From positions 16,229,513-16,293,512 of the forward strand of contig CAIIXF020000004.1 of the NCBI GenBank assembly GCA_903813345.2: a stretch of DNA of 64,000 nt. The letters run 5' to 3'. The position numbers were made by a program, and so were the translations under genes. Positions 7,890 through 31,556 of the stretch are shown here, piece after piece. This stretch comes from Owenia fusiformis. Lineage: Eukaryota; Annelida; Polychaeta; Sabellida; Oweniidae. Under the pieces are notes generated by a model. It was given only the letters and a program-made list of their open reading frames with translations, did no database searches and was not told the origin of the DNA. How positions within the stretch are numbered: position 1 is the stretch's first letter; each line of letters opens with the position of its first letter.

Positions 7890-10800
7890 TTATATCACAT
7901 CATGTCCATCCTCTTTTAAGACATCGACATTATAAGCCACTCTCTTCTTTTTCAGCAATGCATTGTTCTTGATCACAACCGTATCTAAAAATTAATTCAA
8001 AAATCACCTTACATAGTCGTTCACTCGCAAAGAGTTGGTTGTTTTGCTTGCTGTACTATCACATCAAACTAGTTCTCAAACTAGTACGAACGGAACCGTC
8101 GTACTTCAATCCTACTAGGGACGTTTTAACAACGAGTTGAACTGTCTGAGGACGCGTTGAGAACGAGGTAGAACTAATTGCAAACGGGTTTAAACTGACT
8201 AAGAACGTATTAAAGACTTCTTGTGAACGAGTTAGCAAAAATATAGCTATCACACCAAACAAGTTTCCACTGCGTTCTTCAAAATCGGTTTTAAACTGTG
8301 TGCGAATGGAATGAACGTAGCTGCAACTTTCTAAGGTCCATTTACGAACTTCATGAACTTTCTCAGACGGGAAGGTGATTTAGAATTTTGAAATGATTCA
8401 AAATTCGATGGCGACCATACCGTTCTGTAATCAGGTCATGGTGACATTCTAGACGAAGGGACGCGTTATACGACGTTGCACACCGACGTGGTGCGACCTG
8501 AACGAACTGCGAATGAGATGGACGTATTGAAGACTGTTTATGAACGAAGTTGCTAATTATTTTAGATATATTTCCCGACCACAGTCAGATTGAGCCCCTT
8601 TTACGACGTTTTCGTAGGACTGGCAAGAACGGGTAAGAACTAGTTTGGTGTGATAGGGGGAAATTAGGGGCAATGCTCTAAAAAAAAGTTCAGTTTTAGG
8701 CCATATAAACCACCTTTTGAAAATTAGAGTTTTTGGTACATATAAATACATTTGCATGGCCTAAATGAACTAGAAAAACAGCCACGAAGTAGCAAATCCT
8801 ACCGAACAAAACATATTTTGATAAGTGGCCGTCTTGAAAATTTTTGAAAAAAGCATATCAGCATATAAAATATGAAGCAAATCCATCCTTTGGTATCTGA
8901 GTTATCAAAGATCATGTTTTTGCTTGTGGACTTCCTCAATACAGTACTAGTTAATATGCAAATACAGGAAAATGCTCAGACATGTCCATAATTATTACAC
9001 CACCATGCCTAATGTTATTTATATTAGTAAAAATATTATCAATTAGTGTAGCAGAGTGGGATGTTACTCTAGTAGGACGGTAAATAACGGGATGGTGGTT
9101 AAATGAATAAAAGCAAGTTCAAGAAGTCTTTAGTCATGTATTTCATGCTTAAAAAGATCAATGTTGAAATCCCCAGCCAAAACTGATAACTTCTTTGACT
9201 CATCTACATTAGACAGGAAAGCCTTTAAGTTGATATTGAACTCATTTATGTCTATTTGTGGTGGTTCATAAATGGTCAAGATTACATTTTTTACGATAAA
9301 TGAAGGCCATTTCGAATAAAGTGGCCACATTGGAAATTCCATCTGGAACAGAGGTCCTACTTCCATGATGCATTAACCTTTAAAATTGGAATCAAATCCG
9401 CCGACCGTACGCGTTATTTGAGTTCTTGCCCGGACACACGGACGAACGAACAGACGGATGGACGGCTTTTCTATATCCCCCTCGAACTTCATTCGGTGAG
9501 GTAATATTATCCAGTTACACTTTGATACAAACTCTACTCCCGGTAATTTTCGCGTGCTACTACATTTTGTGCTTTTCGCAAATTTTGGAAGAAATCGCGA
9601 AATATAATAGCCGCAAATTTTAAAGTTCTAATTCGCGAAATTCCCGGGAATTTATTTCACTCAATGTAGATGATATTTTCGGCAAGTATTGGGCGATAAA
9701 GGGTTCAGAGGTTACTGCATTCTTACATTCAGATTCTGGAAGAACATAATTAAATTAAAATTGCTCAAGATAAAGGGTAATCATGGCTGATATTGAAGTG
9801 CAAAGCGTGGTATTGCATGACAAACCCACTTAAACTCTAAAAACGTACAAAAGTAATTGCCAACCTACATAAAAGAAGCAGGACACATTTTCAGAGGTCA
9901 ACTACCGCGAAAATTAATAGCTGCAACATTTCAAAAAACTAAAAATTAGCGAAAAACGCGAAATATAATAGCGTCAAACATTAGTGGGAGTGCAGTAATT
10001 ACTTACTTATCAGCCGCAATTATACACAGAATTTAGTTTGTAGCATGGCATGAAATGGCATAGGGTTGGAGTAAATGTAAAGAATGGGTTTAAAACCTGT
10101 GCAATGTTAAATATGTTATCGTAATCTTGTGATCAAGACAATATGAATTAAAGGTAGTACGGTACCGTACTTACATATGCCAACCTTGCTACATATTTTG
10201 CTTCCAGATTCGGGACATAAATGACAGTGCACCTCAGCCATGGGCTCCACAGTTTCAACCTCACCAGATTCACCCTATATAATCAATATTATCAAAATAT
10301 CAATCTCTATAGTTGTAAGTACTATGTTCATTGGTTCCTCAGTTTCAACCTCATCAGATTCACCCCATTATAAAAATGATAAGACTGGATTTGCAAGTTG
10401 TACTTATCGTACACATATATTCCCCGGTAAATTGTAACCTTTGAATGATTAGTACATAAACATGAAGATCTGAAGTATTAAAGAGAAGAAGTATTGAAAC
10501 ATTATTTACCTTGAAATTTATTCCAATTTCAAGCTCCCCCTCTTTACTCAAAACGAACCATCTACAATGAATATTGGGTTATTTAAGTTATATTAAGTGT
10601 GGTGACACAATTTTAATTTTGAGGTTATCATACATTCGACCTAATCATAGTTGTTAGTGATTGCATACGATATTGACGCCGAACACCGACCGACAAACAT
10701 CAACTGCAGAACATCGACCACACAGAACATTTTCTTTCATATTGAAATAACGAGATAAGTAAACTGAATTGAAATATTCCGGAAAATTTTCAATTACAGA

Positions 10801-13800
10801 ATGAAATAAAGTACTTCACATAATACATGCTAAAAAGTAAAGAATCCACTTGCATAATTGAGAATCCTATAGTATTGACCTCTATTTCAATGGTGATTTC
10901 TTGTCCTCTTTCAATATCAACTTTGGTATAATCAGAGTTTAGCTCATAATCGGCGAAACTTGGTGCCATATAATACGATTTGGGAATCTTACTTGGATAT
11001 GTTATCTATAACACAGGAAGTTAATATGGATGTAGTACAATGATAGAAGAATTAAAGAAAAACAATCTATCGTATATGCACACATCGTGCCTGCATGTTT
11101 GAGATTCGTATTACCAATTCGCTATTTGTTTAAATCGTTCATCAAAAAAGAATTTCCTTCATATACCTTACTGCTAAACTTTGGGTCGCCATCTTGATCT
11201 ACCAAAGTCCCACCATAATAACCAATTAGTTGGTCTTCGTCTATGAACCTTTTCAAATCCTTTATATCTGAACAATATTTTAACATACATATAACAAATA
11301 ACATTGTACTCGTGTCGCTTTGTATGCACATGTTATAGTTTTAAATGATTTCGTACAGAAATATTGTTCTAACGATGTATCACAAATATATATCATCATG
11401 TCTAAAGTTATACATGCTCGTCCCAATAGAAAGACTAAAACGTGGGTGATAATTCTAATTACATAACACCACGTGTTCTCGGATGGTTATGAAGATAAAA
11501 AAGGACAATTGTATAATACCTTTCACGAGTTCTATTTTAGATAACGTATGTTTGGGAGCTATGGCCTTGTATAACTTGAAGAGAATGTTCATCACTGTTG
11601 AGTCTAAAGCAATATAAAACACACGAAATGATCAAGGATTTGTTTATATCCAACAACGTTGAATCTAAAATAATATAAAACACACGAAATGATCAAGGAT
11701 TCGTTTATATCCAACAATGTTAAATCTAAAAGAATATAAAACACACGAAATGATCAAGGATTTGTTTATATCCAACAATGTTGAATCTAAAAGAATATAA
11801 AACACACGAAATGATCAAGGATTTGTTTATATCCAACAATGTTGAATCTAAAAGAATATAAAACACAAGAAATGATCAAGGTTTTGTTTATATCCAACAA
11901 TGTTGAATTTAAAAGAATATAAAACACACGAAATGATCAAGGTTTTGTTTATATCCAATAATGTTGAATCTAAAGCAATATAAAACACACGAAATGATCA
12001 AGGTTTTGTTTATATCCAATAATGTTGAATCTAAAGCAATATAAAACACACGAAATGATCAAGGTTTTGTTTATATCCAACAATGTTGAATCTAAAAGTA
12101 TATAAAACACACGAAATGATCAAGGATTTGTTTATATCCAATAATGTTGAATCTAAAAGAATATAAAATACAAGAAATGATTAAGGTTTTGACAATTTAT
12201 AAATAAAGATATCTCCCTTATTGCAGTATTAGATTTATTTTCAAAATGATCTTAAATGAAACAATAAGTTCCTATGCGTCATGTTGTGTCATGGACATTT
12301 TCATTTTTAAAAACGTATTACATATTGTTAAGATGTATATTAAAGCAAATTACGTACATGTTTTGACTTTTGAAATATATGTATACGCAATAGAGCTCAT
12401 TTAAATAAATTGTAACGTTGGCATTTTCAACAATGTTTCTTGATTTTTTGCCATTTTAACATTATTGAAATAAAAAATATCTTACTGCTTATTAGAATAA
12501 TTTTGTTTACAAATTCAGGGTAGTAGTTTGCGAAAATTCCATCATTACTGTTTAATTGATACTGCAGATCTAAATCTGAAACATATGAATAAACAACTTT
12601 TTACAGTTTACAGATTTAACAACAATGTGTTATAAAATGCGTGGGAATGTACAACAAAAGCTTTGAGATATATATGAAAAATATATTTACTTGGTTTTGA
12701 CAACATGTCCATCCCGAGATTCCTGTAATCTAAGATAAAAGTTGCACCTTTGTATGGCTGGAAAACAAGAAGTAATCATATAGAAACAAAGTTTATCAAC
12801 ACAAATTTTCAAGCACATAATTTTTAATTATTTACAATTCATCCTACATAAATAAATGCACGTCATAGGATAAACGAAAAACCAAGAACAAAGGCAATGA
12901 ATTATATGAGTAGATCACAATCATGATTGCCTAGACACTGGTACTCACCTAGCTACGCTGATGATACGTCAGCGTAACAAGATGGAGAACTTCCGGGCTT
13001 CGTTTTCGGTAAGATATTTTTATTTCTCGATTCTACACCACTTATTAGTCAAGTTGTGGACATTAATATTGCCAATGTAACAAAATTCATGAAGATCGTC
13101 AACGTAACAAAAGCGAGGGACTAAATATGTGAATTGCGTCTTCGTTAATATACCAAACATAGAACCGCCTGCATATTCTCAAACTAGACTATCTTCCTTA
13201 ACTCTGAGCAAAAGTATTGTCCACAACTTGGCTTATAAGTGGTGTAGAATCGGGAAATAAAAATATCTTACCGAAACCAAAGCCCGGAAGTTCTTCCATC
13301 CTGTTACGCTGACGTATCGTCAGCGTAACTAGGTGAGTACCAGTGCTAGAGCAGGAATTCGCTATTACTAATTAGGAATTTCGTCAACGTATGATTACAG
13401 TACCTCAAAGTAATGTCTTTACGATTTTTTCCTGTGATGATCCTAAATGGTCACCAAAATTAAAATTGGTAGAAATTCTGATATATCTCTTACTAGTATG
13501 TCTTTTAACCGGCCTTTTATGTTTGTCCTCATGTTCTATTCAAAAAGTTCCCAATGACTCTATTTATTATTACATTTAGCGAGCATAGCATAGGTTTTTG
13601 AGTCTGTAAAAAGCATGGTATTTGTTTTGGGCATATATTCAATCCGCTAAAAACACAATTCAATGTTTTATCTGAACCTCGCCAGCAGTTCTGGCTGCTA
13701 CCAAACACCGTCTACATGAAGACATCTTCGTAGTGTGTGCCAAATTGCTTTCTAAGTGGCTTAGTTAGGCTAAACCTATGTTGTGGTAGCTTACTATGAA

Positions 13801-16800
13801 TTGACCCATAGTCATTTTAGATTGATCTATTATCTATTCATTTTTACTTGTCTGCAGTCAAAATAGTGACACGAAAGGGCTAAACGGCTTGCACCAAGGT
13901 GCGACCGTCAAAAAGATGAGTTTGAAAAATATAATTTTTTTTAAAATAATACTTGTAAGTATACAAAATAAGATGCAAATTTGATATTGATGTGTAATGA
14001 TAGTCCATTCGGGTGTGGTAATTTTATGAAAAACAATTATGGTAAAAAATTGGATATTTATGACCTTAAAATGCGATTTCAATTAAAAAGTTACTGTTGT
14101 CAAGGATATTATTCCTATTTTATATAGTCAGTGTTTTTTAAATATACCAATAACCATTTCATTAGTTTTTGACAAAGTAAATAATTATAGGGCTCACACA
14201 AGGATCAACTTTGTTCATAGCATTTTCATATTAAGTGATGTTTTGAAAAAATACGAAGGTAAACTGAATTTTATTTTTTATTTGTTGAAGAAAAAACAAT
14301 TATATGTTTGTTTTCTTGTTTCGACTGAAAAATCTCAATTCATCGCCCTTGCTTCGCAAGCAGGAGAGTCTACACCAGTACGAAAAAGTCTTCAAAAAGT
14401 TGATCCTTGTGTGAGCCCTACAATTATTTACTTATATAATGGTTATTCGGATATATAAAAATCATTTAATAGGTAAAATAGGAAAAGTATCATTGACTTT
14501 TGATTTTGAATAAAGAAGTATTACGAGCATATAGTGCATCACTTAGTTTATAGCTTGCAGACAGTGATCTAAGAGGCATCATCTTGTAGTAATGGGCGTG
14601 ACAGTGATGAGACGGGAATTGATTTTATTAATGCAAGTTTTGACTAGTATTGATGGTTTATCTTACAGACGTCATATTAAAAGATACCAATTTGCATTAC
14701 ATCAACATCAAAGAAGTTTGATTTGTTCACAGATACGTGTCAGAGTGATACTTGTAGCAGTTGCACTAGATTGATATACAACAAGATATGTGTGAGCATT
14801 CATTGCAACATTTACTTAAGAGTTATAATTTTACTAAATCTGATGGAAGATTAGATAATCTATCTCTTTTGGTTTATTCAATTTGAATAGTACTTTTGCA
14901 ATAAAGATACCTTAGTTTTGAAACATTAGCAGCAATTTCATTTCAAAAAGATCAGTTTTCAACTTCGTACTATGTTTTGTTCATAAAATGTGTATTCAAC
15001 ATAGGTCAAAAGTCAGGGTAATTTCAAGTTTAAAATATCAATATCTAGGATAGTTGGCATTTTAAGACATTTTGCCGATGGTGTGACCCTTCACAACTGA
15101 TGATTATGTGACCTGAGGTAAAGATCAACTGAATGGGTGTAGGTAATTTCAAGGTCAATATCTAGCAATTGGGTGTTTTAAGGCAATTGAGAACAATTCT
15201 GACCCTTGACAACCGATTATTAGGTGACCTGTTGTCAGGGTCAAGGTCTATAGGTCAAGATCATTTCAAGGTCATCAATATCTAAATATTTGGCATTTTT
15301 GGGCTGAGGTTACCCTTTGTGAATCATGAATGTGTGACCTGAGGTCAAGGTTATTTCAAGGTCAAATATCAGTATCTAAGTATTTGGTGTATTAAGGCCC
15401 TGGTATCTGCTGTGGCCCCTAGCGACTCATGATAGGGTGACTTCCAAGGTCAATATCTCGCAATTTGGAGTTTAAAGGCAATTGAGAACAATTGTGACCT
15501 TTGGCGACCGACCAATGATTAGGTGACCTGGTGTCAAGGTCATTTCAAGTTCAATATCTAAGTAGTTGGCAAATGTGGGGCTACAGTCCTATTTAATGAC
15601 CAATGATAAAATGACCAGAGATCTATAAGTCAATGTTTATGGATCAAGATCATTTCAAGGTGATAGCCCAATATCTAATTAGTATTTGGCGTTTTGGGGC
15701 TGAACGTGTTTTTGTGAAAACAATATGATTTTTCTTATGTAAAGTCCCTGTGATAAAAATGATATCATCCAACTTCTTCACTTGAAAAGAAAAAACATCA
15801 TGAATCCCCCTCAACCTTTATTTTTCAACTTATTTTTTATGATTTCATTCTGGTTTGATTCCTTGACAACTTAATGATACACTACATGATTTTACTACTA
15901 TATGTACGGGTATAAGCATCAAATGTGGTGCCACTTGTTATTAATAACATTCGTAAACATAATGCTTGAATGTATCAATAAATTGAAATTGAAAATATAA
16001 ATATTTGAAAATATATCTGAAATATTATTGATATTAAATATTAGGCTTATTTTCTAAAGTATTTTTTCTTAATTCGAATATATCAAAAGTTCTTCTACGC
16101 TAATGAATTAACAAATTCTGAAAAGGGGACGGGTATTGAAATGCGATAAAGTTAAAAACCACAAGTTCCATGTTATTTTCCATTGGAAAAACTCAAACTA
16201 TCCATTGTTTTCAACATAATCGTGGTCATTGAAAATTGATATCTCCAAAACTAGACTTTCATTACAATTCTACTAATGAAAAAGTTTTAGACCACTTGTT
16301 GAATAATATTTTCATGCAATTCAAATAAAAAAGAAGAACCTCTGTTGAGTAAATAATTTCAAAAAAATGTTGAGATGGGTTCCCCATTCATAGTTTTTTA
16401 GATTGTTTGAATGATATTTTTATAATCATTGAGAATTGAATTTTCTTGAAAGATAACATATTGTGTTTTTGAGAAATGTCATATTTATATTGAGAAAGTA
16501 GTCATGGTAAAATATATGAGTCAACGATCAGATATCACTTGCCATACTATACCTGGTCCTTTGCCAATTTGAAGTGAATTGTAAAATCATATCAGGAGAG
16601 AGGACATCCAAATATGAGGTCATTAGTTTAATGACTGCAATCAGTAATCAACAGCCACGAGAGTTACTTTCTCTAGTAATTCTGAATTGGATCAGTATTG
16701 TATTGTATTGTATTGTATTGTATAATATGACCATTTAATTCACACTAGTTTCTTCATATGCCTGGACTAAAAAATCCCGAATCTGTTTGGGTGAAATAAC

Positions 16801-19800
16801 CAAATGTGACCAATAATATGAGTATATTTGAGTATTGTCTCTTCACTTTCCAGTCAAAAATGTAAGATTTAAAAATATTTTTGCAAATAATTGCAGTAAA
16901 GCATGCAAAATATAATGCACATTGGTTATTGAAATGTAAAGATAGTCCATGAGGGTATGGTTATATTATTAAAAACAATTATGGTAAAAATTGGGTATTT
17001 CTAACCATATAATGCTTTTTATTCCAAGTTCAAAGACATTCTTCCTATTTTACCTCTGAAATGATTTTCATACCACCGAATAACCATTATATCAGTTTCT
17101 GGCAAAGTAAATAAGTGTAGGGCTTACACAAGGATCAACGTTTTTTAAGACTGTTTATGTACTTGTATATCCCCTGCTGTTCTAAGAGGAAGAGCAATGA
17201 ATTGCGATTTTTCAGTCAAAACAATGAAATAAACACACTCTGTTTATTTTGTTAAACATTTAACAAATAAAATTGTGTTTAACCTTATATTTTTTCAAAA
17301 CATCACTAAATATGAAAATATTGCAAATAAAGTTGATCCTTGTGTGAGCCCTATATTTATTTACTTTGCCAAAAATGAATATAATGGTAATTTAATATTT
17401 TGAAAACATTGAATAGGTGAAATAGGAATATTATCATTAACAACCATGACTTTTGAATAAATATGGTATTTTCAGGTCAGAAATATATAATTCTTCACAA
17501 TTATTGTTTTTTATAAAAATGGCCACACGCAAATGGACTATCATACTTATCAATACCAAATTTGCCTCCTATATTGTATACCCATTGTTATTATTTGAAA
17601 AAAATAATTTTTTATCAAACTCATCTTTTTGATGGTTGCACCTTGGTGCAAGCCGTTTAGCCCTTTCGTGTCACCTTTTTGAGTGCAGACAAGTAAAAAT
17701 GAATAGTTGATGGACCAATCTATAATGATAATGGGTCACTTCATAGTAAGCTACCACAACATAGGTTTTTGTGATTTTCTGGGGTTTTGGCACACACTAT
17801 CGTGCCATACATAAACAGAATAATAACAAAGCGGCGTTTATCGTCTACCTTTTATATACAAAAACACAGAATGAAATCTTGTGCTTAGATATCATTCGGT
17901 GTTTTCAAGACAAATATCAAGTGAGTTATGTTGTGCCATAGTAGTAGTAGTAGTAGTAGTATTTTTATTTATTTATGTCTCACGCACTAAAACAGATACT
18001 GTATATAATATCACGTTAAAACAATACATAAAAATTAAACAGTGCCTGGCCGATGCCGACCTATGAGAGACAGTGGAGTGTTACATTATGCTACGCCGTT
18101 TGGCTTGCATTTTTATAATTGTTTTACCAAGTGTTCGTTGAACAGTCTTTTCATTCATTATCAAACAGTATTTCACTAAACTTGTTTGCATATCAAAGTC
18201 ATTATAATTTAACATTTTGGAAAACAGACTAGATCGTTCATTTATATATAATTTGCACTCAACTAAAAAGTGAATTTCGGTCTCAACTGACTGACCACAT
18301 GGGCACAACCTCTGGTGTAGGGGAGTTGCGGTGTACCTCCCAGTTTCAATGTTTAAGGGCAGTGTGCCGTGACGGAGTTGAGCAATAGCGCGTCTCTCAT
18401 ATCTGCTCATTGATTGCGTAACGTAATGTTCTGGCTCAGTGCAATGTACTTTGTGTAGGCGATAAGTTCTGAGTTTGTTTCCGTTTGGGCACCCGTTATC
18501 ATTATGAATCATCCTATGCCACTCGATATGATCATGAGATGCTAGAGTTTCCTTGATTTGGTTAATTTTAGCTCTGGTGTTGGGGATAAATTGCATGTCT
18601 GTGATGTCCCCCGCTCCTGCGTGTATCAACGTTGCCTTCGTGTGAAATTCCCATGTTTTGCGGTTTCCGGCCATTGTTAAATTAGTTGAATGTTTATGCA
18701 CTTGCTTAGGAAGTCTATCATCGGCCATGTTTGTCAGCCGACACCACAGGCGACTTACTGCTGTTTGTTGATGTACATATGGAGAAATACTGGCAGTATC
18801 ACCCATTGTCGCTGCTCGAGATGCCCGATTACTGACACCGAGGAAAATTCTATTGGCCCGTAGTTGGACATTGTTAATTTCCGTATATTCGGTATTCCCC
18901 CAGATTCCGGCTCCGTAAAGCATGATGGGTGCGACCATAGAGTCAAACAGTTTAGTGAAAACACGAGATGACATGCCTCCTTTTAATGTAAACTTTGATA
19001 TGAGAACACCAAGCGCACGATTTGCCGCCTGGGCCAATGTTTTTACAGTTACTTTCATATCGAGATGCTCAGTGAATATCAGTCCGAGGTATCGGTAAGA
19101 CTCCGTGTAGTCGAGTTGCATATCACCACATGTAAATATAATGTTACTTCTTCTAACGTTTGTCGGCCTAAAATGAATCACTTTGGTTTTATTTTTATTA
19201 AGCGTTATTCTCCACTGGGAGCACCAGACGTTTAAGGTATTGAGTAGTAATTGCAATTTAGTGGTTGTAGGGGCAATTAGCGCAATGTCATCTGCGTACA
19301 ACAAAATTGCAATATTTCTGCTTCCAACTTGTACGCCCGCGTTCAGTGCGTTAATTTCTGCAACCATATCATTAACATATATAGAGAAGAGGGACGGCGA
19401 CAACAAACATCCCTCCTTCAAACCATTATTAACGTTGAACCATCCAGTAAGTTTTCCATTTAGACGTACACAACAACTCACATTTGTATACAGGGACTGA
19501 ACTGCCCCTAGCATTTTTCCATTTATTCCCATGTTTAACATTTTAAACCAAAGCAACTCTCTGTCGACGGAACTGAAAGCACGTTTTGCGTCAACGAATG
19601 TGACGTACGTCGACGCCTTAGACGACTTTCTATTGTTAATAATTGAATACAATGTATAAAGATGATCCTCACAACTTCTGTCAGACCTGAAACCGTTTTG
19701 TTCATTTGCTAATTTACCATGTACATTAAGCCATTTATTCAATCTAACATTTAGGATTCCACAATATATCTTGCTGGGGATACTTAAGAGGGTAATACCT

Positions 19801-22800
19801 CGATTATTGAGAGGGATGCGCTTATCACCTGATTTGGGGATCGGGACGATAACACCTTTATTCCACTCTGTTGGGACCGTGCCAGAATCAAAGCAATACG
19901 AGCATATCTTATGCAAGAGTGAGATACAGTGGTCATTTCGTAATACTTCCACTGGAATATTATCAACTCCCATGGCTTTTCGTAGTTTTGCTCGAAACAC
20001 ACTATCCCGCACTTCGCCAAGTGTTATTCCTTCGTTCAAATCCGGGTCAGTGCGCTCGTCACACGGGTTAGTCGTCGGCGTTTGTGATCGAATCTTATCC
20101 CGATGTTGATCATCAAACTTTGAATTAGGATCCGGATTATTAATACTGGCAAAATCATTTTTCCAAATGTTTAGTGCATCGGATTCGTTTGTTATCAAAG
20201 AACCATGTTTGTCGATTGTATCAAAATTGAAAGATTTACGTTCATTTGCTATCCCTATCTTTCCGATCTCTTTCCAAAACGAATGTTGATCTGTACTGTC
20301 ACATAAATCAAGTAGTGCTTTTTGTTCATCCAGCTGATATTTCCTTTTCAGACGTCGATGTGTTTTATCATATATTTTTCTTGTTTTACAAAACTGCTCA
20401 CGTAATCTGCGTTTTTCTGCTCCATTTTGTTTACATTTTACATATAATTTTTCACAATCATTTGAAGCATTAAGTTTTTGTTGCAATTCGTCGCACCAAT
20501 ATGGTTTATATTTCATTTTCTTGCCCGTTAAACTTGCATCCCTTATTTTGATTTTATCGAGTTTTTTATCCATTTCACTAGTGATAAAAGTATTTAGCTC
20601 AGAGTAGGCTAGGTCCAAGTTCTGCTCATTTGTAAGAATACGTTCAATGCGGTCAATTGTTTCAGCTACTGCTTGGATCATTGAATTATCCATATAGTTA
20701 TTAGGCATTGGATTTGTTTTGAATTTAGTGTGAACAATTGCAACATTTGGATCACTCGATCGTGCTTCTAATTGCTGGTTACTTTTTAATGAGCATACGG
20801 CCCGCAGTAATGAATGATCTGGTAGTTTATCCGGTGCTGCCATCTCGTGCTGGGCTACAATATCAGTCATTCTATGAATCTCAAAGTCTGACTAGTTCAT
20901 AAGCTGCTCATGTGGGACGAACATATAGTCCACTACCGATCTGCCACGCGTAGATACAAATGTAAAGTCGTTTTTTTCCTGATCCACGTCCATTTAACAT
21001 GCACAGATTGCTTGTAGTAAGAAAGTTCAATAGAAGATCACCTTGGTAATTACGTTCGTTGTCAATGACACTACGGTGCGGCACAGAATCTACACCTTCG
21101 ATAAAATCGGAAGCATCTCCACATCGTCCATTAAAATCACCGCATATAAGTAATAATCCTTCATTTTGGAACATGTATGTCTGTTGCAAAATATTGTTAA
21201 AATATTGCTCCAAGTCCACAAAACGCGAAGACTCTTTTGGTGGTAGGTAAGTCGAACACAGACATAATGAGTCACCACCTGATATTGGTTTCAATTTAAT
21301 CCAAAGTGTATCATCAACTGTATCATCTAGAAGTTCGTACGTAAAGTTTGTTAACACGCGTTTATTTAATAATATACCTACGCCACCAGATCCACGCCTT
21401 GCGTTAGCGTTGACTGCTGTCCTGTTTTTTCCAATCCAAATATAGTTACTGCGGATTGGTTCAAATGTATTTAGTTGGTCCTCATTTCTTAAGAACGTTT
21501 CATTTACACATAAAATATCAATATCTAAAACGTCTGTAACTTTAGAACGAAACTCATTGTTATCATTAAAATATGTGGACCAGCCATTAACATTCCAATG
21601 TGCAATTTTAAGTCGGCATCGGTCGTATTCCTATTGACGAACTGCATTATTCTGTTTTCGGGCCTTGGCACGTTGACTAGGGGTACTCTTTGATTTTTGG
21701 TTGAGCGTTGCATTGCTTGATTCTGACACGCGAGGTGACGGGTTAGATTTTGGTTCCTCTCCAGAGCGATGGTTGGGGATATTGGGGCGTGATGTATCCT
21801 CGTTGGCACTTGTTGACAAATGATTACGTGAGGTAGATGAATCAGGACGTAGATAATTTGTGATGTTGTTAATCTTAGGGTTTTCCTGGGTGATAATGAT
21901 ATCCTGAGGTTTCACTGATTGTGGTACTATATGGGAGCCATTTGGTTGTGCATTATTATGGCACTGAGCCCCACATTGATTGCCATGATATGACGAGCTG
22001 TTTGTAGCAGAATGGTTTGAACTGTTAACATAGCCATATTGTCTTTGTTTTTGTACAGTTTGTTCAACCATTCTGCGCATCAAACGCTCTTGTTTCAATA
22101 CTTCAGGTGATTTGGCAATATTGATATACACTGAATTATACACATTAGACGATTTTAAGGCACTTTTACGCTTCATAATGGTATCCCTATCCTCGGTTTT
22201 ATTCAGAGGCACTGTCACTACCCTTGGCCTAATTGCTCCTACGCGGACAGCTCCAACTCTCCGTGCTGGACCAATATTTATTTCATTCGCCTTGAAACCC
22301 AGTCCTTTAGTTAATAGATCGTTGACACTAGTGCTTACGCTCTCGTTGGCTGACTCGGGTAGATTGAATACAGCTAGCTCCACGGGATCAAGGTTAGAAA
22401 CTGGGGTGGATAGACTCTGACTCCGTTGCTCAATTGCATCAATACGAGCGTTCAATTCTGACGACGCTTTGTTTACTGTCCGGCTCACTTCATTGCGAAT
22501 GGCCATTTCAGAATTGGTCACAACCTCAGTTGCAATTGCACGAATATTATCATCTTGTTTTGACATTGAGTCTAAAACTTGATTTAGCATTGTGTATAAT
22601 GTATCTAGAGTAAAAGGGCTGGTTTTACCTTTGGGCGTTTTCAGCTTTTTGGGTTTACTGGCGCCATATTGGATTTCACAATCTGACGTGTCACTATCAC
22701 TGGAATGTGCACGCTTGTTATTCCTTTCTCCAACGTTTGATGCCATCCCGTCGCATATATGGATTCCGTTTAGCGTTATGTGCAGTCAAATTCAATAAAC

Positions 22801-25800
22801 AAGTCCATATGTATCTTAAAAAATCGAGAAAAACTAAAAAACTTTGGCTCTTGCTTGAAACACGTTTTTCTTGGTTGACGCATGCGTATAATAAATGATA
22901 TATGTCTTTCATAATGCGCCAATGTCGTGAATTGATGTCAAATGATATTTACACGTCGCACGAAACTGGGGACAATTAGCGTAACATTATGGCGTCAAAA
23001 AAAAAATGAGCAGTATAGGGCGCAAACAGCCTTACAACGTCAAAAACGACAAGTGTCACATTTTTTACAAGTTTAGTCAACCTAAAAATAAAATACTTTA
23101 TTCTTATCTAATCATTACAAAATTTACAGGGTAGCAAGATCTCGAGGACAATATTTCTAAAATGTTTTTGAATTTTGAAAAACGGTCAAAAAATCCACTT
23201 GGGACGTTAGTAAAAAATGATATGTATGGAATTTGTGGTAAAAAATCGATGCGTCACATTTTTTCAAGTCTCGAAAACCAGCTCTTATTTTGATATTATT
23301 TGCAAAATAAACAAACCGGTTATTGTTTTGTAAATTTCGCCATGACAATATTGTGCAGTTAAATTTTCTTTCAAATCAGACCTAAATTAGAAGGTTAAAT
23401 GAAGGTAAACTTATTGCTCGTCCCATTCGCCTTCAAAACCTTACACAATTTTGAAAATTTTAAAAGCGTTCGATAATTTGAAATGTAGCCGTTAAGCAAT
23501 TGTGACGTCATAAATGCAAATGTTCCATTGAATAAATTGTGAAATTTAAGTGGGATTTTGATCATTATTTCAAAAGTTATCTCAATTTCAACGAGCCCTG
23601 TAAGCGTAAAGTGTTACGTCTTACAGCGTATTTGACGATGTCGGAGTATATTTAACTTTAAAAATGTGTTGGATCCCATCAAAATTTTGAAGGAAAAATA
23701 ATTTCATTGAAATGCGAATAAAAAATACTTCAAAATGATATGTAAAACACATAGTTGGCTTTTTAAATAAGGCAGAGATTAACGTTCAAAGCTTAGATAA
23801 GCCCGCATTTCCCGAATTGTCCCCAGGTCCGTGCACGTCATAATTACTTTTTTAAGAATGTACAACTCACTTTTGAAATCGCCTTCACTGCAACGTCCGC
23901 CTTTTCTACGGAGTACGAATTCAACCAAATCAAGTCTTTAACTTGACAACATTGAAGCAATCCTTTTCAAATACAAAATACATCAGTTAAAACTATAATA
24001 TGATATGGAAATTTTACATGTTGTTTCGTGCATTGCTCCGTCCTCTTTTTGAATCGTCTAAAACATGAATGATGTTCTCTTAATTGTGCTTTTGTTGAAT
24101 ATATCTCGAATCGAGTGTTCTAAATAAATAAATGAATTGTGGTTCATCCCTATTAGGGTAAGTACTAATATTAGTCTGACGATGTAGGACAATATTGACA
24201 TATTTGACCCCATAAGAATGACTCAAGACGGTTGCAAATAGTCACAAACATGCATGTGAACACTCAAACTATGAAAAATTGATCAGTATCCAATATGGAA
24301 ACTAATTACTGGAAATCAATCGCTAAACAAAGGACAACTTAAATAAAGTTATTTTTGATCGAAAATCTCCAGTAATTTTGGAAATAAAATTATAGAAACG
24401 CAAAAAATGTTTTTGGACCCTAATATTGTGAATTGTTGTCAAGCCAATGCAGGTAGCAGTATTTATATAAAAAATAGATTTGCATGGCCCAAAAATAAAC
24501 GACCCCAGGGTTAACAAAGCAGCTTTAAAAGCTTTTCTAGTGGAGCGATTGGGCTTAAACTGAACAAAAAGTTTCAAAACACTCTCATGTTAAGAGAAAT
24601 ATTTTTTTTGGCGCACAATCATTCACTCGTGTCACTATCAGGAATATTAAAAAAAGGGATCGAAGACATCTTTATTGTAAACGGAACAGTTACACAGAAC
24701 GAAACAAAACATAAACCCCGGGGATATCTTGAAACTACCAATATGGAGCATATACCTTTGACATCCTGACCATCGTAGTTACAATACATTACTGGTGTCC
24801 CGTCTTTATCTTTTCCAATTGGAGGAGAGCAGTTTGGTAAAAACTTGGCAAATTCAGGAATCTCACGATTTTGACGATTTTCAATGTCGATTTCGTCTCG
24901 CCATTTTAAGCACTGTCAAAAAAACAAGTTCTTATAACAAAAAATGCAAATCACAATGAGAATACACGTGGCTGTTGTCGGGGAAGGGTTTCTAAGCAAT
25001 CTAACTACACACATTCATGAAGATTTGTAAATAAAGTTGATATACCATAGCATTTATTTAGCGTCTTTATTTGATTTTTTCAATTTAATGTTTAATTTAA
25101 ATTTCTCTTGTATGAATTTTCACTTTTCAATTCAAACATTCACATTTATTCAAATGTGCTCACACGGGAAGGTTCAATATTTTGAAGTTATGACCAAAGA
25201 CAAGCTGAAAACCTGTTTTTTCCGAAATAAAAGTTGAGGCCAATTTGAATCTTTGCGACTTGTTTTGCCGAAACTTGTAGGCCTTACTGATAACCTATAA
25301 ATTAAGGAACATATACAATTTCTAACAAATTGGTGGAAACTTTGTGGAGTTATAACCAAAAGATAATGGGGACATGTTTTCTTATCCAGCACTAGTGTAA
25401 CTGTTTTAGGTAATTGAGACATTTCTGATAAAAATGGTATCCAGAAACATGATATTTTGAATAAAACGGGACCAAAAAACGATCCCTGGAGATGCCTGGA
25501 TTATTTGAGGTTTTGGTGTTTTTCACTGGCCTGAAAAATGGATGGGGTAGGGGAGTGACTAGAGGTGTCAAGTATTAACCGATTAACCGGTTAACCGCCG
25601 ATAATGCCTTGACCGGTCTGAGTTATTATGGGCGGTTAGTTGACCGTGTATAATTCTGTTATTTCCCGCGCTTATTTTGCATGCTAATCCGTTTGGTTTT
25701 ATGGTGTCAGTTTCACGTAAGCTACTCATACGTGTCATAAGTCTCATAACTCCTTACAAACATCCAATCAGCAACTTTAATCCCTGCCACATTGCTCTCC

Positions 25801-28572
25801 AGCGCTTACTTTGCATTTTAATCTGTTTGTTTTTCAAGCGTCAGTTTCATGTGAGCTACTCATACATGTGATAGGTCCGATAATTCCTTACAAACATCCA
25901 ATCAGCAACTTTAATCCCTGCCACATTGCTTTCCCGCGCTTACTTACATAGAATAGCGTAAAGCTTGACGAACGTAAAAAATAAACGCCGATATATCATT
26001 TTTCCAATTTTTTCAACTTTCAAGATCGAAGATGAAGATTTCATTTGAAATTATAAGTTCAAATTTCCCGCCGGTTAACCGACTTTAACCGGTAAAAACC
26101 TCCGGTTAACCGGTTAATGCTCAAGCGGTTAATTGACACCACTAGGAGTGACACACCTTTTGGACTTATTCAAGTTAGCATTTTAATCAAATGAATGGTC
26201 ACATGTTTGGTACCATCTTAAAGCCTGTCACGTCCGCTTCAATTTGATACCCATATCATGAGGTCAGACGCTATATTGTGACGTCACGATGGTACCAAAC
26301 GATTATAAATTGAAAATTAAGCATCAAAATGCGGCAAAATAATGGAATGACTCCACCATTGTTTTGCCGTTTTACTACTTGCCACAATCAACCTCACTGC
26401 CAGCATATCAAACCAGGCCCATTTTCCTTCAAACTTGGCCCAACTACTATCAGGTGGATGTCCTTCAAAAATCAAGTTGGCATGGTTACCAAAGCCTTAT
26501 AGTTGCCATGGCAAACGTAGAAATTGGGTAAAACATGAAAGCAAAAAAACCTCCCAAACCCACCATAATGGCACTAATTTATAAAATATTTCTAGACATA
26601 CAAATTTTCTTAAACACTTCTAAATAACAAAAATTGGGGGTAGGTTTACCACTTCGATTTTTGTCTAGGCTTGGTCAAAGTAAAACTACGAGAAAGCACT
26701 CATTTTCACTTTTGAATCACATTTTATCGCCCAAATGGCTATATTTTTTAAAGGTCAATGTCGCCATGCTAAAAGTAGAATTACGGGGATAAATCTGCTC
26801 TTCAGACACTGTTTAATACCCTTTCTTTACCACGGAACAAAGATCTTTGCGCTGGTATGCCCATTTCCATGAGATAATATACGTGAAAGAGGAACTAATG
26901 TCATCAAAACTTTGCCAACACGTGAAAAGGCCATTTCCGCACTACTTTTGGTGTAATAATTCCAACTGAAAACCTGATTTTTACGCCATTAAAATGGTTG
27001 CCATTTTGAAACAAGGCAAGCTTTTGAGACGCCATTCTTGGAACAATTGACACATTTTAAAAGTGAAACTATTCCAATTGTGGAAGATTTTGAATAAGCT
27101 GAAAATATGTTGACAGACAGACCAACGGACGGACAGGCGGACGTACAGACAAGTGGGCCATAACAATAGCTCATCATGTGAGCTAATAATCCAAACAAGA
27201 CAAATGTACAAAAGCTTGTACATAAAAGTAAGTTTGATGTTGTGTACTTATTACTTTGAACTATAGAACAGTGGGTTTAACATATTGTTTTCCTACTTAT
27301 TCGAAGCATGTTTATTTACTTCAAGTTCTCAACATTTTATTTGATGTTTTGAAAACATTTTATTTGATGTAATATTTGGTTAGATTTGATACATTTTCAA
27401 CATTATTTCGAATATTTTACAAATGCCAGAGATTCTTGTATTTTTAAAAACTGAAATCACTAGCGATTGCTCACCTGTCGTAACATTGATTCAGCCTTTG
27501 TAATTTCAAAATCGCGAGCTGAAATCAATATTTGTGATGTAAGTGCAGCGTATGGGTAACATTAAAATTCATAATATGGTACAGAAATAACGCATGATCA
27601 AGGATTTTTTGTAACACATATAGTTTCAAGTATCCAATTATTGAGTTTATTGTTTCTTTAAGTGTAAAAAGCAATATTGCAGTGGTAATTAACTTAGGGC
27701 TCAAAATAACTTAGTCATAAATAAAGCTGTTGTTATTGCCTTTGGGATTTTTCAAAAATTGTATTGTATAAAGTTATACAATACAACAAACATTCAGTGA
27801 CATATATACTATTGCTGGCCATAATAACGCAGATGCGAGTAGGTAGTTACCAGTTTCGCCACCAGGTGACTCGTTCGGGTCAGATAACATGGCGGGTATA
27901 GTAGAAAAATCCCTTTAACTTAAATTACATCTGTTTTAGTGGTTCAATTTTTGTATAACCCTTATGTATCTAATAGATATGCAAATTAAAATATGTCCAG
28001 TAAAAGAAAATGTTATCTGTCCAATACAAGAAAAGATACTTCACATTTTGTGATTTTGTAACATGGGGTCTATGAGGAATCAACCCGAACTAGAAGTCAC
28101 ATTTTCAAAAAAATTAACATGTAACGTACCTCTTAGGAATCTGAGCAAATAGTCATCATCGAGGAGTGGATTTGATGAGACATCTGACAAATGTTCTCTC
28201 ATCTGAAAAAATTACTAAATAGTATTAGTAAAATGTTTAAATGTAAACACAAGTACATTTATACGAAGGAATAAATAAAAGATTTGGAGAAAAAAAGATT
28301 ACAACACTTTAACGGGCTAAATTTCTTCAGCTATAAACACGATTTAATTCGATACTATTCAACTTATTTTAATAAACCATAGTTGTTTTGAAGGGTCGAT
28401 TTCCAAGAGAAGTCTCCAATGCATTTATTTCAAAAATACCAAATAGCTGTGTACATATAGGTATAATGGTATAATTTGATCGTTCATTTGTATGATCTAT
28501 AATATTAAACGTACTTACAATGGCTAACGCATTGGTTTGCTCATCACTCAGGTCGTTGCTGAAGCCACTCAT
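7890..28572 (-). CDS. SEC14L: SEC14-like protein (CRAL-TRIO + GOLD), copy B, 13 exons
   Basis: Exons in transcript order: 28572-28519, 28202-28130, 27518-27475, 24912-24756, 23962-23871, 12757-12691, 12575-12486, 11603-11520, 11267-11167, 11005-10854, 10561-10510, 10274-10175, 7984-7890; 386 residues. It starts MSGFSNDLSDEQ. The CRAL-TRIO N-terminal helix region contains DDDYLLRFLRARDFEITKAE. The lipid-binding CRAL-TRIO domain follows, with YKGATFILDY and the hallmark LIGYYGGTLVDQDGDPK. The C-terminal third is a GOLD domain (SKEGELEIGINFK, KKRVAYNVDV). SEC14L2-family proteins bind and transfer hydrophobic ligands such as tocopherol, squalene or phosphoinositides; the ligand here is unknown. 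Every junction keeps frame. Intron 10 uses a GC donor. Intron 5 (about 11 kb) is filled with transposons. Confidence 0.9.
8056..8656. mobile_element. About 600-bp TIR element, CTATCACA termini
   Basis: The left end CTATCACATCAAACTAGTTC pairs with the right end, which reads GAACTAGTTTGGTGTGATAG with slight differences. A third copy of the tip (GCTATCACACCAAACAAG) lies inside at about 8248, suggesting internal duplication or nesting. Between them are repeated GAACGAGTT-like blocks. No convincing target duplication was seen. It lies in intron 12 of SEC14-like copy B. Confidence 0.6.
9130..9366 (-). pseudogene. LINE endonuclease fragment
   Basis: A 78-codon open frame on the minus strand contains LSVLAGDFNIDLFKHE, the GDFN motif of APE-type endonucleases of non-LTR retrotransposons (CR1/L2-like wording), preceded by DINEFNINLKAFLSNVDES. 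No reverse transcriptase follows in frame, so this is a dead fragment. It lies in intron 12 of copy B. Confidence 0.65.
10329..10364 (-). pseudogene. Decayed partial duplicate of SEC14-like copy B exon 12
   Basis: Read on the minus strand this gives GESDEVETEEPM, against GESGEVETVEPM at the start of exon 12 (10274), a 90-bp upstream shift. The acceptor preceding the real exon ends TATAG, while the duplicate has TAATG, so the AG has been lost. Similarity ends after 36 bp, so the duplicate should not be spliced in. Copy A has no equivalent. Confidence 0.65.
10848..10853 (-). promoter_or_regulatory. GC donor splice site of copy B intron 10
   Basis: Exon 10 must end at 10854 to keep frame with exon 11 at 10561. 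The intron then begins GCAAGT, the consensus for rare GC-AG introns. The nearby GT (CAA|GTGGAT) would bring a stop within six codons. Paralogue A has AG|GTAAAG at the same phase-2 position. Confidence 0.75.
11595..12190 (-). repeat. 61-bp minisatellite, about 10 units, each copying a splice acceptor
   Basis: Ten units of 61 bp run from the exon 8 boundary of copy B (11603) to about 12190, with few differences between units. On the minus strand each unit ends in TTTTATATTCTTTTAG and is followed by ATTCAACATTG, nearly the same as the real junction TTTTATATTGCTTTAG|ACTCAACAGTG. The array lies in intron 7 and so stacks about nine look-alike 3' splice sites upstream of the real one. Confidence 0.9.
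12936..13345. mobile_element. 410-bp MITE, CACTGGTACTCACC termini, 5-bp TSD
   Basis: The terminal inverted repeats are about 125 bp with few mismatches, beginning CACTGGTACTCACCTAG. Both sides are flanked by CTAGA (12931-12935 and 13346-13350), a perfect 5-bp target duplication. It lies in intron 5 of copy B, close upstream of exon 6, and has no coding capacity. Confidence 0.9.
15010..15720. repeat. Diverged tandem repeat, about 150-bp unit, about 5 units
   Basis: Units repeat the blocks GGTCATTTCAAGGTCAATAT, CTAAGTATTTGGC, a GGGCTGAGG-like block, a TGACCCTT-like block and GATTAGGTGACCTGAGGTCA, with substantial divergence. It sits between the two inverted ends of the compound foldback element. 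Confidence 0.7.
16695..16722. repeat. (GTATT)n microsatellite
   Basis: About five perfect pentanucleotide repeats of the GTATT type. Confidence 0.85.
18081..21628 (-). pseudogene. LINE ORF2: endonuclease-reverse transcriptase, broken
   Basis: APE endonuclease motifs occur in order: HWNVNGW, NETF, GDFNGRCGD, SVVDYMF and PDHS. The reverse transcriptase has GVDNIPVEVL, FVDAKRAFSSVD (motif A), GLKEGCLLSPSLF (motif B) and LLYADDIAL (motif C, YADD). A CCHC knuckle (CPCGQSVETEIHFLVEC) lies near the C-terminus. The frame is broken by a likely one-base expansion in a run of seven A (minus strand, 20971-20977) and by a TAG near 20893. The 929-codon stretch 18081-20870 is open. The upstream endonuclease frame follows the ORF1 stop directly, in the same frame. 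Confidence 0.85.
21631..22746 (-). CDS. LINE ORF1 protein, 371 aa
   Basis: The N-terminus is basic and serine-rich (KKLKTPKGK). A likely coiled coil follows at residues 60-115 (MLNQVLDSMSKQDDNIRAIA onward), then an RRM-like region around LAVFNLPES and RPRVVTVPL, and a polar low-complexity C-terminus. This matches the general plan of L1-type ORF1 proteins, which bind the element RNA as chaperones. It ends with TAG at 21631-21633, after which ORF2 continues in the same frame. Confidence 0.7.
   Translation of the reverse strand: MASNVGERNNKRAHSSDSDTSDCEIQYGASKPKKLKTPKGKTSPFTLDTLYTMLNQVLDSMSKQDDNIRAIATEVVTNSEMAIRNEVSRTVNKASSELNARIDAIEQRSQSLSTPVSNLDPVELAVFNLPESANESVSTSVNDLLTKGLGFKANEINIGPARRVGAVRVGAIRPRVVTVPLNKTEDRDTIMKRKSALKSSNVYNSVYINIAKSPEVLKQERLMRRMVEQTVQKQRQYGYVNSSNHSATNSSSYHGNQCGAQCHNNAQPNGSHIVPQSVKPQDIIITQENPKINNITNYLRPDSSTSRNHLSTSANEDTSRPNIPNHRSGEEPKSNPSPRVSESSNATLNQKSKSTPSQRAKARKQNNAVRQ
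22951..23841. mobile_element. About 890-bp TIR element next to the LINE 5' end
   Basis: The left tip ACACGTCGCACGAAACTGGG with GACAATT pairs with the right tip, whose reverse complement reads TGACGTGCACGGACCTGGGG and GACAATT. An inverted, truncated relative lies at 2964-3470. No transposase ORF is visible. It ends about 30 bp before exon 5 of copy B (23871). Confidence 0.65.
25560..26144. mobile_element. 585-bp hAT-like MITE with 8-bp TSD
   Basis: The termini are TAGAGGTGTCAAG (left) and TTGACACCACTA (right), each followed inward by GGTTAACCGGTTAA-type blocks. The 8-bp direct repeat GGAGTGAC flanks both sides (25552-25559 and 26145-26152). Tip sequence and 8-bp duplication are both typical of hAT elements. 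Inside is a direct duplication of about 130 bp (units near 25667 and 25800, sharing CCAATCAGCAACTTTAATCC). It lies in intron 3 of copy B. Confidence 0.9.
27108..27150. repeat. GACAGAC/GGACGGAC-type low-complexity block
   Basis: A short run of GACAGACAGACC, ACGGACGGACAGGCGGACG units precedes GGGCCATAACAATAGCTCA. A similar block is at 9428-9462. Such blocks are common in molluscan dispersed repeats, from general knowledge. Confidence 0.5.
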
Positions 28573-29717: not shown

Positions 29718-31556
29718 TTGATATGCAATTTTCAATGTGATAATGATTTTAAAAATACTGTGAATACTGACAAATTGTTAGGATTTTATAGAAAACTATT
29801 ACATCTATGGAAATCAAACAATAAATTCAAAGACAGCTCTATTTTATGGCGTAATGAAAATATTAAAGCTACAAGTAAAGAATTGTATTTTCAAAGCTGG
29901 ATTAAGCGTGTAATAACTTTTATATGTGATGTTTGCAAAAATGGTCAGATCATTTCTTATGATGAAATTGTTTCCTCAGTAGGCAGAAATGCTGAAACAT
30001 GGATGCAATATCAAACTTTGAAACAAGCACTCAAAAGAGAGATGATATCAGAATATCAAAATGTAGTTCCAGCAGATACTTTATACTTCAATTATACAGA
30101 TGTGCAGTACTTGTTCAAGATTTTAGGAAAATTTTAATAGAAAAACAGGTTTGTGAAATTGTAACCAAAAATGAAGTGTTAACAAGAAAAACCTGGCTTA
30201 ATGCAAGAAATTGTACAACAACAGCAGACCTAATTATACTACACTGGAAGATTTTACATATCTATGTAATCTTTTACTGCATAGATATGGTATTTTAATT
30301 TAAATAGCTAATTTACACGGGGTACCATCGAATAATTTTGGCAACGTACCGGAGAACTACATTTTACTAAGAAATGGCAATAATTTAGCACAATATATTT
30401 TTTAACTAGAGTTCTATTTTGATTATGACAAAAGTAAGTATTCCATGCAATAACTATTTCATTCATGAGTTTGTAGGAATTCTGTTGGAACCCAGTTCTG
30501 ATCAAGTACGAAGTTATTGAAATCGGCGCAGACGGACTTTACTCCGAAAGATGGTTTTTCGATTATAACTTTTCACAACATTTAAGTATAGACTTTTGAA
30601 AAAAGTACAGAATAGTCCTTATGCTTTTGAATAATTCTGTTATTTCTGATTCACACGACTCTGATTTGTTTAATTAAAAAAGAAGTTTTAAAAATATTAC
30701 TTAGGAACGTAACCGGAGCTGGGAACGTAACCGGAGCAGATCAGTTGAATTATTTAATCAAAAAATTAAAATATATGATTTAAAGCACATATACTAATTT
30801 AAAAACATACGGGATTGTTCGAATGCGTATTTATTAATATATATGCTTTAAATCATATATTTTATTTTTTTAAATTATATAATTCAACTGATCTGCTCCG
30901 GTTACGTTCCCAGCTCCGGTTACGTTCCTAAGTAATATTTTTAAAACTTTTTTTTAATTAAACAAATCAGAGTCGTGTGAATCAGAAATAACAGAATTAT
31001 TCAATAGTATAAGGACTATTCTGTACTTTTTTCAAAAGTCTATAGTTAAATGTTGTAAAAAGTTATAATCGAAAAACCATCCTTCGGAGTAAAGTCCGAC
31101 TGCGCCGATTTCAATAACTTCGTACTTGATCAGAACTGGGTTCCAACAGAATTCCTACAAACTCATGAATGAAATAGCCATTGCATGGAATACTTACTTT
31201 TGTCAAAATCAAAGTAGAACTCTAGTTAAAAAATATATTGTGCTAAATTATTGCCATTTCTTAGTAAATGTCGTTCTCCGGTACGTTGCCAAAATTATTC
31301 GATGGTACCCCGTGATTTAGAGCACCATTTTGTTAAATGCAAAGCAGTTGCTGAATTTTGGACTAAACATTTCCCTAATATAGCTGCCAATCAAATATAT
31401 GGAATAGGTATAGTAAAGAATTACAAAAATATACTCATAGCAAAGTTATCTATTCACAAATGGTATATTGAAGAATGTGTGAGTAACTTGAATACTCTTT
31501 ATGAATTCAAAACCTCATCTTTGTACCATACTTGTAAAATAATTATGTTTAACTGA
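29718..31556 (+). pseudogene. Old LINE ORF2 C-terminal remnant, split by an insertion
   Basis: Segments 29718-30310 and 31320-31556 encode wording typical of the C-terminus of L1/Tx1-like ORF2 proteins: LLGFYRKLLHLWKS, SSILWRNENI, TWMQYQTLKQAL, then after the interruption LEHHFVKCKAVAEFW and LIAKLSIHKWYIEEC. The first part has a frameshift near 30137. No reverse transcriptase catalytic core is present. The gap is exactly the 999-bp palindrome at 30316-31314 plus its target duplication. This element differs from the LINE at 17940-22900. Confidence 0.7.
30316..31314. mobile_element. 999-bp near-perfect palindromic transposon, 5-bp TSD
   Basis: The left end CACGGGGTACCATCGAATAA is mirrored by the right end TTATTCGATGGTACCCCGTG. 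Two arms of about 480 bp pair along nearly their whole length around a centre of about 40 bp near 30815. The arms contain doubled GGAACGTAACCGGAGC motifs. ATTTA flanks both sides (30311-30315, 31315-31319). It interrupts the LINE remnant and is younger than it. Because the arms pair, each strand encodes mirrored ORFs of about 65 codons with no recognisable product. Confidence 0.9.

What the first reader, a model, noticed from the sequence alone, without database searches (positions are those of the whole stretch)
11595..12190. Minisatellite that multiplies a 3' splice site about ten-fold
Each 61-bp unit in intron 7 of SEC14-like copy B contains the acceptor context TTTTATATTCTTTTAG plus about ten bases matching the start of exon 8. 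The array seems to have grown by tandem duplication across the intron-exon boundary, leaving about nine look-alike acceptors directly upstream of the real one. Because 61 is not a multiple of three, use of the next acceptor upstream would shift the frame into a stop, so array length could tune expression through alternative splicing and decay. The paralogue has only a small unrelated 21-bp repeat in that intron. The repeat structure is seen directly; the regulatory effect is inference.
Basis: partly seen in the sequence, partly recalled or inferred. Interest (0 to 1): 0.75.

Follow-up and report, generated by a model that had tools for sequence, protein, structure and literature searches.

The report
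Repeat array copying a splice acceptor
In one animal SEC14-like gene, a 61-base repeat has copied the end of an intron, with its splice signal, nine times in front of the real site; most copies look usable and would break the protein, yet the gene is still intact, so this is most likely a tolerated accident rather than a switch.

Summary
On the minus strand, intron 7 of SEC14-like copy B ends in a 61-bp array without indels that reaches 14 nt into exon 8. It has ten acceptor positions: the real one (exon 8 starts at 11603) and nine upstream copies, eight with AG. Paralogue C has one homologous acceptor here, the un-amplified state. On a matrix from 47 acceptors of four paralogues, the eight AG copies outscore the real site (9.6-12.9 against 8.4). 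Each of the nine positions would lead to an early stop. But copy B is intact and constrained (B-C dN/dS 0.19), the copies show no sign of selection, and splice junctions carry tandem copies about as often as random positions (4/94; 94/3000). Best reading: a passenger minisatellite; the last acceptor still makes enough productive mRNA, with some unproductive leakage. No RNA or population data were available, so tuning by array length is untested. Donor-side equivalents are known (ABCA7, F7, IFI6); ten literature searches listed no acceptor-side one.

The parts
7890..28572 (-). SEC14-like copy B, 13 exons, 386 aa, open reading frame intact
   Evidence: gene model with phases matching copy A; CRAL_TRIO PF00650 E 8.5e-18 and CRAL_TRIO_N; PDB SEC14-like protein 4 E 1.3e-47
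11604..12485 (-). intron 7 of copy B, 882 nt (248 nt in copy A)
11590..12199 (-). 61-bp minisatellite in acceptor register, ten positions, running 14 nt into exon 8
11520..11603 (-). exon 8 with the real acceptor directly upstream (AG at 11605-11604); lowest score of the nine AG-bearing sites in the array
11651..11711 (-). copy k1, acceptor with exon-first base 11664, score 12.1
11712..11772 (-). copy k2, exon-first base 11725, score 11.2
11773..11833 (-). copy k3, exon-first base 11786, score 11.3
11834..11894 (-). copy k4, exon-first base 11847, score 12.4
11895..11955 (-). copy k5, acceptor AG lost (AA), exon-first base 11908, score 4.2
11956..12077 (-). copies k6 and k7, identical to each other, exon-first bases 11969 and 12030, score 9.6 each
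12078..12138 (-). copy k8, exon-first base 12091, score 10.0
12139..12199 (-). copy k9, most upstream and most divergent, score 12.9; with its flank it aligns to the single acceptor of paralogue C
31615..41834 (-). tandem paralogue A, no acceptor array in intron 7

Best explanation
A 61-bp minisatellite arose in the lineage of copy B after it split from paralogue C. A segment made of the last 47 nt of intron 7 (branch-point-like motif, pyrimidine tract, AG) and the first 14 nt of exon 8 was duplicated in tandem and then expanded and homogenised to ten positions. Each AG-bearing unit looks like a complete acceptor module, so eight usable-looking acceptors now lie upstream of the real one. Shown: the anatomy, the single-copy state in C, the scores and the predicted stops. 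Inferred: the real, most downstream acceptor still makes most productive mRNA, probably because exon 8 is recognised together with its own donor, which favours the nearest acceptor; the copies cause some frameshifted, decay-prone transcripts. The array is tolerated and has no selected role that I could detect.
For: Single homologous acceptor in C. Double unit matched only at this locus (not exhaustive). The eight AG copies score at the 66th-96th percentile of 47 family acceptors; each of the ten positions has a yTnAy motif with its A 29 nt upstream of the junction; inside the intronic array AG occurs only at the acceptor positions. Copy B has no stop or frameshift in the model; B-C dN/dS is 0.19; private changes are B 16 amino-acid and 13 synonymous against C 13 and 6. 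With a per-lineage divergence of 0.029-0.033, half the mean pairwise unit difference of 0.058-0.067, a gene silenced since the units began to diverge would be intact with probability 0.009-0.015 under my assumed indel rate. Neutral pattern in the copies: AG losses 1 against 0.85 expected; 20-nt acceptor window 8 changes against a mean of 8.5 over rotations. Tandem copies span 4 of 94 splice junctions against 94 of 3000 random positions. Human data: with long flanking introns the strong preference for the upstream of two comparable acceptors is significantly reduced, and the LS class mimics exon definition (PMC9225289 abstract and passages). Here intron 7 is 882 nt and intron 8 is 252 nt.
Against: No RNA evidence at all. 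The real acceptor is the weakest of the nine AG sites in the array, and the classical intron-centric rule would favour the most upstream copy, only 333 nt from the donor. The published human acceptor data show an overall preference for the upstream site. The age of the array may be misjudged because units homogenise. The weight matrix rests on only 47 sites from one gene family. The selection test has nine copies and little power.
Confidence: 0.62

Rival explanations
1. Splicing rheostat: the copies draw off a set share of transcripts into decay, and changes in unit number tune the output of copy B.
For: Eight strong acceptor modules and no productive outcome from any of nine positions. In human ABCA7 a donor-side VNTR of similar design is associated with lower expression as it grows.
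Against: No detectable selection on the copies. In ABCA7 retention of one repeat unit was about 2% and independent of array length. No unit-number variation data.
Confidence: 0.13
2. Self-masked copies: joining exon-like and intron-like ends within the array made a hairpin over each copied acceptor that is absent at the real site, so the real acceptor wins although its sequence is weaker.
For: A predicted hairpin with the acceptor in or beside its stem in 9 of 9 copies (-2.7 to -5.1 kcal/mol over -6..+24), none at the real site (0.0) and almost none in C (-0.1). Single-unit z from -1.3 to -2.7. Over AG plus two bases the real site is more open than eight of nine copies (0.28 against 0.07-0.25; k9 0.33).
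Against: The copies descend from one founder, so this is one observation. For the AG alone the real site is above every copy in only one of four settings (W60/L40: 0.61 against 0.33-0.56), and by the same measure the copies are on average more open than most of the 46 family acceptors compared.
Confidence: 0.1
3. The upstream copies win and copy B is mostly silenced at the RNA level.
For: The AG copies score higher and k9 is nearest to the donor across the intron; intron-centric proximity rule as summarised in PMC9225289.
Against: Intact frame and unchanged constraint.
Confidence: 0.08
4. The repeated branch-point and pyrimidine-tract modules act together to recruit U2AF and U2 and help the last acceptor.
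For: Each unit has a yTnAy motif at -29 and a pyrimidine tract.
Against: Eight of nine copies also keep their own AG, which an enhancer platform would not need; no data.
Confidence: 0.04

Closest known systems
ABCA7 intron 18 VNTR (human; PMC5954066, passages read)
   Same: Minisatellite that starts at a splice site of an exon; each unit carries a copy of that splice site; use of the next copy adds one unit, shifts the frame and exposes the mRNA to decay.
   Different: Donor side, 25-bp unit, about 12 to 427 copies, polymorphism and RNA effects measured. Here: acceptor side, 61-bp unit, one assembly, no RNA.
Coagulation factor VII intron 7 repeats (human; PMC6627357, passages read; the primary paper, Borensztajn 2006, was not held)
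   Same: Variable number of highly similar repeats at a splice site; only the genuine end site is normally used.
   Different: Donor side, 37-bp unit; the most upstream site is the genuine one. Here the genuine acceptor is the most downstream.
IFI6 (6-16) minisatellite with multiple splice donor sites (Turri 1995; only the title in a reference list seen; paper not held)
   Same: By its title, a minisatellite that supplies several splice sites to one transcript.
   Different: Donor sites. Details not read.
Internal tandem repeats at exon-intron boundaries of human duplicated genes (PMC2812944, passages read)
   Same: Minisatellites that expand in recent paralogues at exon-intron boundaries and can change splicing.
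   Different: Framed as exon repeats and formation of new introns; the passages read do not describe an array of acceptors (the supplementary tables were not seen).

Membership tests
Minisatellite that multiplies a splice site (donor type: ABCA7, F7, IFI6) | Tandem array of units of tens of bp abutting an exon | tested here: met
   61 bp, ten positions, reaching 14 nt into exon 8
Minisatellite that multiplies a splice site (donor type: ABCA7, F7, IFI6) | Each unit carries a copy of the genuine splice site | tested here: met
   eight of nine copies keep AG and score above the real site; single-copy state in C
Minisatellite that multiplies a splice site (donor type: ABCA7, F7, IFI6) | The copied site is a donor (5' splice site) | tested here: not met
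   the duplicated junction is intron 7/exon 8, an acceptor
Minisatellite that multiplies a splice site (donor type: ABCA7, F7, IFI6) | Unit number varies between individuals | not testable with these tools
   one assembly, one matching place
Minisatellite that multiplies a splice site (donor type: ABCA7, F7, IFI6) | Copies shown to be used, or shown to be ignored, in RNA | not testable with these tools
   no RNA data
VNTR-tuned unproductive splicing | Use of a copy leads to a premature stop upstream of an exon junction | tested here: met
   all nine positions; stop 20 nt (k1) or 87-514 nt (k2-k9) upstream of the exon 8/9 junction, with exons 9-13 downstream; the 20-nt case is close to that junction but later junctions remain. 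Decay itself not tested
VNTR-tuned unproductive splicing | Selection keeps the copies functional | tested here: inconclusive
   changes fit neutrality, but only nine copies
VNTR-tuned unproductive splicing | Expression changes with unit number | not testable with these tools
   no expression data
SEC14-like (CRAL-TRIO) proteins | CRAL_TRIO domain over curated cut-off | tested here: met
   65.1 bits in copy B, cut-off 22.6
SEC14-like (CRAL-TRIO) proteins | C-terminal GOLD domain | tested here: inconclusive
   PF13897 not reported for copies A or B, but the C-terminal part of B aligns with SEC14-like protein 4 to its residue 388

The most novel reading that the evidence does not exclude
An acceptor-side splicing rheostat: unit number in an unstable 61-bp array sets the share of copy B transcripts lost to decoy acceptors, possibly with hairpins formed at the duplication joints that partly mask the decoys so that the last, weaker acceptor can compete.
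Probability: 0.12. Interest if true: 0.65.

Novelty: new variant of a known kind. Interest (0 to 1): 0.36.

Why it matters
How a spliceosome chooses among nearly identical acceptors is usually tested with made constructs or pairs of sites. This is a natural series of nine AG-bearing acceptors at multiples of 61 nt, with the higher-scoring ones upstream, a natural AG knockout (k5) and a single-acceptor paralogue as control. Junction counts from ordinary RNA-seq would show directly whether position across the exon or position across the intron decides. The donor-side equivalents in ABCA7 and F7 matter in human disease; an acceptor-side case would complete the picture.

Tried and rejected
Rejected: a dispersed repeat or mobile element with an internal array. 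The double unit matched only this array in the assembly (not exhaustive).

Rejected: a chance resemblance between unit and exon start. Paralogue C shows the un-amplified junction.

Rejected: array used as in-frame coding exon. None of the nine positions gives a full protein.

Rejected: pseudogene. Frame, phases and constraint are intact.

Tested and weak: masking hairpins, selection on copied AGs, excess of duplications at junctions. My first null for the last test included positions inside the array; one search repeats it with the array left out (94/3000) and with it in (129/3000).

Led nowhere: Pfam on five single ORFs of the region gave no family. A search for the GOLD domain in the genome gave two matches at one other locus. 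Weaker protein matches on contigs C3, C9 and C12 were not followed. Papers: ten searches ran; I saw no acceptor-side array in the rows listed; the library holds only open-licence full texts and some lists were cut.

Limits: the weight matrix uses 47 acceptors from four paralogues and is not MaxEnt. The models of C and D start at exon 2, and their donors were chosen by expected length with GT required. The structure comparison used 46 of 48 acceptors (C exon 2 dropped, too near the end of the locus; B exon 8 left out as the test case). The silencing estimate assumes 10 indels per 100 substitutions, 70% out of frame (my assumption). The shuffles keep base composition only.

Full report
OBSERVATION. 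The region lies on the minus strand in a gene that I modelled as 13 exons from 28572 to 7890. Its 386-aa product has CRAL_TRIO and CRAL_TRIO_N domains and matches SEC14-like protein 4 over residues 2-381. A tandem paralogue, A, has 13 exons with the same phases at 41834-31615. Intron 7 of copy B is 882 nt (12485-11604); in A it is 248 nt. TRF finds a 61-bp array at 11596-12191, 9.8 copies, no indels. Set in register on the acceptor, it has ten positions: the real acceptor, with exon 8 starting at 11603, and nine copies with exon-first bases 11664, 11725 ... 12152. Eight copies keep AG; the one at 11908 has AA. Unit consensus and exon 8 agree at 11 of the first 14 exonic bases, and beyond these the two sequences part, so the duplicated segment was about 47 nt of intron plus 14 nt of exon.

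ORIGIN. Searching the assembly with protein A gave 50 exon-sized matches, the strongest of them outside the window at two places on the same contig, which I fetched as L006 (paralogue C) and L007 (paralogue D). C is the closest to B (81% protein identity, against 67% for A-B and 66% for B-D). C has one acceptor at intron 7. The 110 nt upstream of it align to the flank plus the most upstream unit (k9) of B with a local score of 70; 500 shuffles gave at most 52; the 110 nt next to B's real acceptor gave 39. So C shows the state before amplification, and k9 with its flank keeps the old intron edge. k9 is also the most divergent position (8-15 differences from the others), as expected of an array edge. 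A double unit matched nothing else in the genome (5 matches, all here).

ARE THE COPIES GOOD ACCEPTORS? I built a weight matrix (-22 to +4) from 47 acceptors of the four paralogues, leaving the test site out. The real site scores 8.4 (57th percentile of the leave-one-out scores); the eight AG copies score 9.6 to 12.9 (66th to 96th), and the AA copy 4.2. The 99th percentile of 1135 background AGs in A and B introns is 8.3. Each position has a yTnAy motif with its A 29 nt before the junction, and within the intronic array AG occurs only at the acceptor positions. The real acceptor is thus the weakest AG site of its own array.

CONSEQUENCE. Splicing to k1 adds 61 nt and gives a stop in exon 8 after 234 aa; k2 to k9 stop after 232 aa inside the array; 0 of 9 give a full protein. 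k5 is counted although it has no AG. With exons 9-13 still to come, these mRNAs are predicted targets of decay (inference).

DOES IT MATTER TO THE GENE? Copy B has no stop or frameshift in the model. B-C dN/dS is 0.19; the other five pairs give 0.16-0.17. With A and D as outgroups, B has 16 private amino-acid and 13 private synonymous changes, C has 13 and 6: no sign of relaxation in B. If the gene had been silent since the units began to diverge, an intact frame would have a probability of about 0.01 under my assumptions. So the downstream acceptor must still work in a large enough share of transcripts.

IS THE ARRAY SELECTED? Among nine copies, one AG base is lost against 0.85 expected from the rest of the unit, and the 20-nt acceptor window has 8 changes against 8.5 on average over rotations. 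Tandem copies spanning the site were seen at 4 of 94 splice junctions of the four genes (B exon 8 acceptor, B and D exon 12 acceptors, C exon 2 donor) and at 94 of 3000 random positions with the array left out (129 of 3000 with it). Junctions are hit about as often as anything else in these repeat-rich genes. This is what a passenger would look like. It does not exclude a small effect.

WHICH SITE WINS? Two rules pull in opposite directions. Classical work, as summarised in PMC9225289 (abstract and passages), favours the acceptor nearest to the donor across the intron, here k9, and the human acceptor data in that paper show an overall upstream preference. That preference is significantly reduced when flanking introns are long, and in the LS class behaviour resembles exon definition, which favours the acceptor nearest to the exon's own donor, here the real one. 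Intron 7 is long (882 nt) and intron 8 is 252 nt, near the 250-nt divide used there; how far this holds in this animal is unknown. Scanning to the first AG downstream of a branch point (PMC1431707 passages) would let any unit's branch point use its own AG. I also noticed that the joint between exon-like and intron-like sequence makes a small predicted hairpin at all nine copied acceptors, absent at the real one. In one search (AG plus two bases) the real site is more open than eight of nine copies; (AG alone) it is more open than every copy in only one of four settings. I keep it as a testable minor idea.

KNOWN RELATIVES. ABCA7 intron 18 is the closest studied design: a 25-bp VNTR that begins with the exon 18 donor; use of the next copy retains one unit, out of frame; this was about 2% in the tissues tested and not affected by VNTR size, while exon 19 skipping rose and expression fell with size. 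Factor VII intron 7 has 37-bp repeats at the donor, of which only the most upstream site is used normally. IFI6 has, by title, a minisatellite with multiple donors. Tandem repeats at exon-intron boundaries alter splicing in human duplicated genes. The three single-gene cases are donor-side. In ten literature searches I saw no acceptor-side array; the library is partial.

VERDICT. A real, well-delimited acceptor-side counterpart of known donor-side minisatellites, most likely a tolerated passenger with some unproductive splicing. The regulatory claim is open and cheap to test with RNA-seq.

Noticed in passing
window about 10364 (minus, copy B); L007 read on its reverse complement, 8323 beside 8417 (copy D): The acceptor of exon 12 is also partly duplicated in tandem in copies B and D (copies about 91 and 94 nt apart; scan, sequences). 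In B the upstream copy has no AG; in D it reads ATAG.
   Followed up: partly
L006:149, 248, 514: In paralogue C the end of exon 2 with its donor is present three times, a donor-side counterpart in the same gene family.
   Followed up: partly
L007:8-802: In paralogue D most of the last coding exon with its short 3' flank is amplified as a 137-bp array of 5.8 copies; the acceptor is not part of the unit.
   Followed up: partly
window 37658-37726; L006:7733-7802; L007:3846-4299: Each paralogue has its own minisatellite in intron 7 or 8, with different units (21 bp in A, 61 bp in B, 17 bp in C, 31 bp x 14.7 in D).
   Followed up: no
window 10853-10562 (minus): Intron 10 of copy B is modelled with a GC donor (AT|GCAAGT), where A has GT and C and D have GT at the expected exon length (GT required there).
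   Followed up: no
window 18081-20870 and 21631-22746 (minus): A reverse-transcriptase ORF (RVT_1, E 4e-34) and a 371-aa ORF without Pfam match lie inside the 11.1-kb intron 5 of copy B, same strand: probably a retrotransposon insertion.
   Followed up: partly
window 45566-50947 (minus): A 1793-aa ORF with ZNFX1 and AAA_11/AAA_12 domains.
   Followed up: partly
window 13774-14510 with 17022-17796; 30304-30780 with 30873-31332: Inverted similarities, perhaps foldback or MITE-like elements.
   Followed up: no
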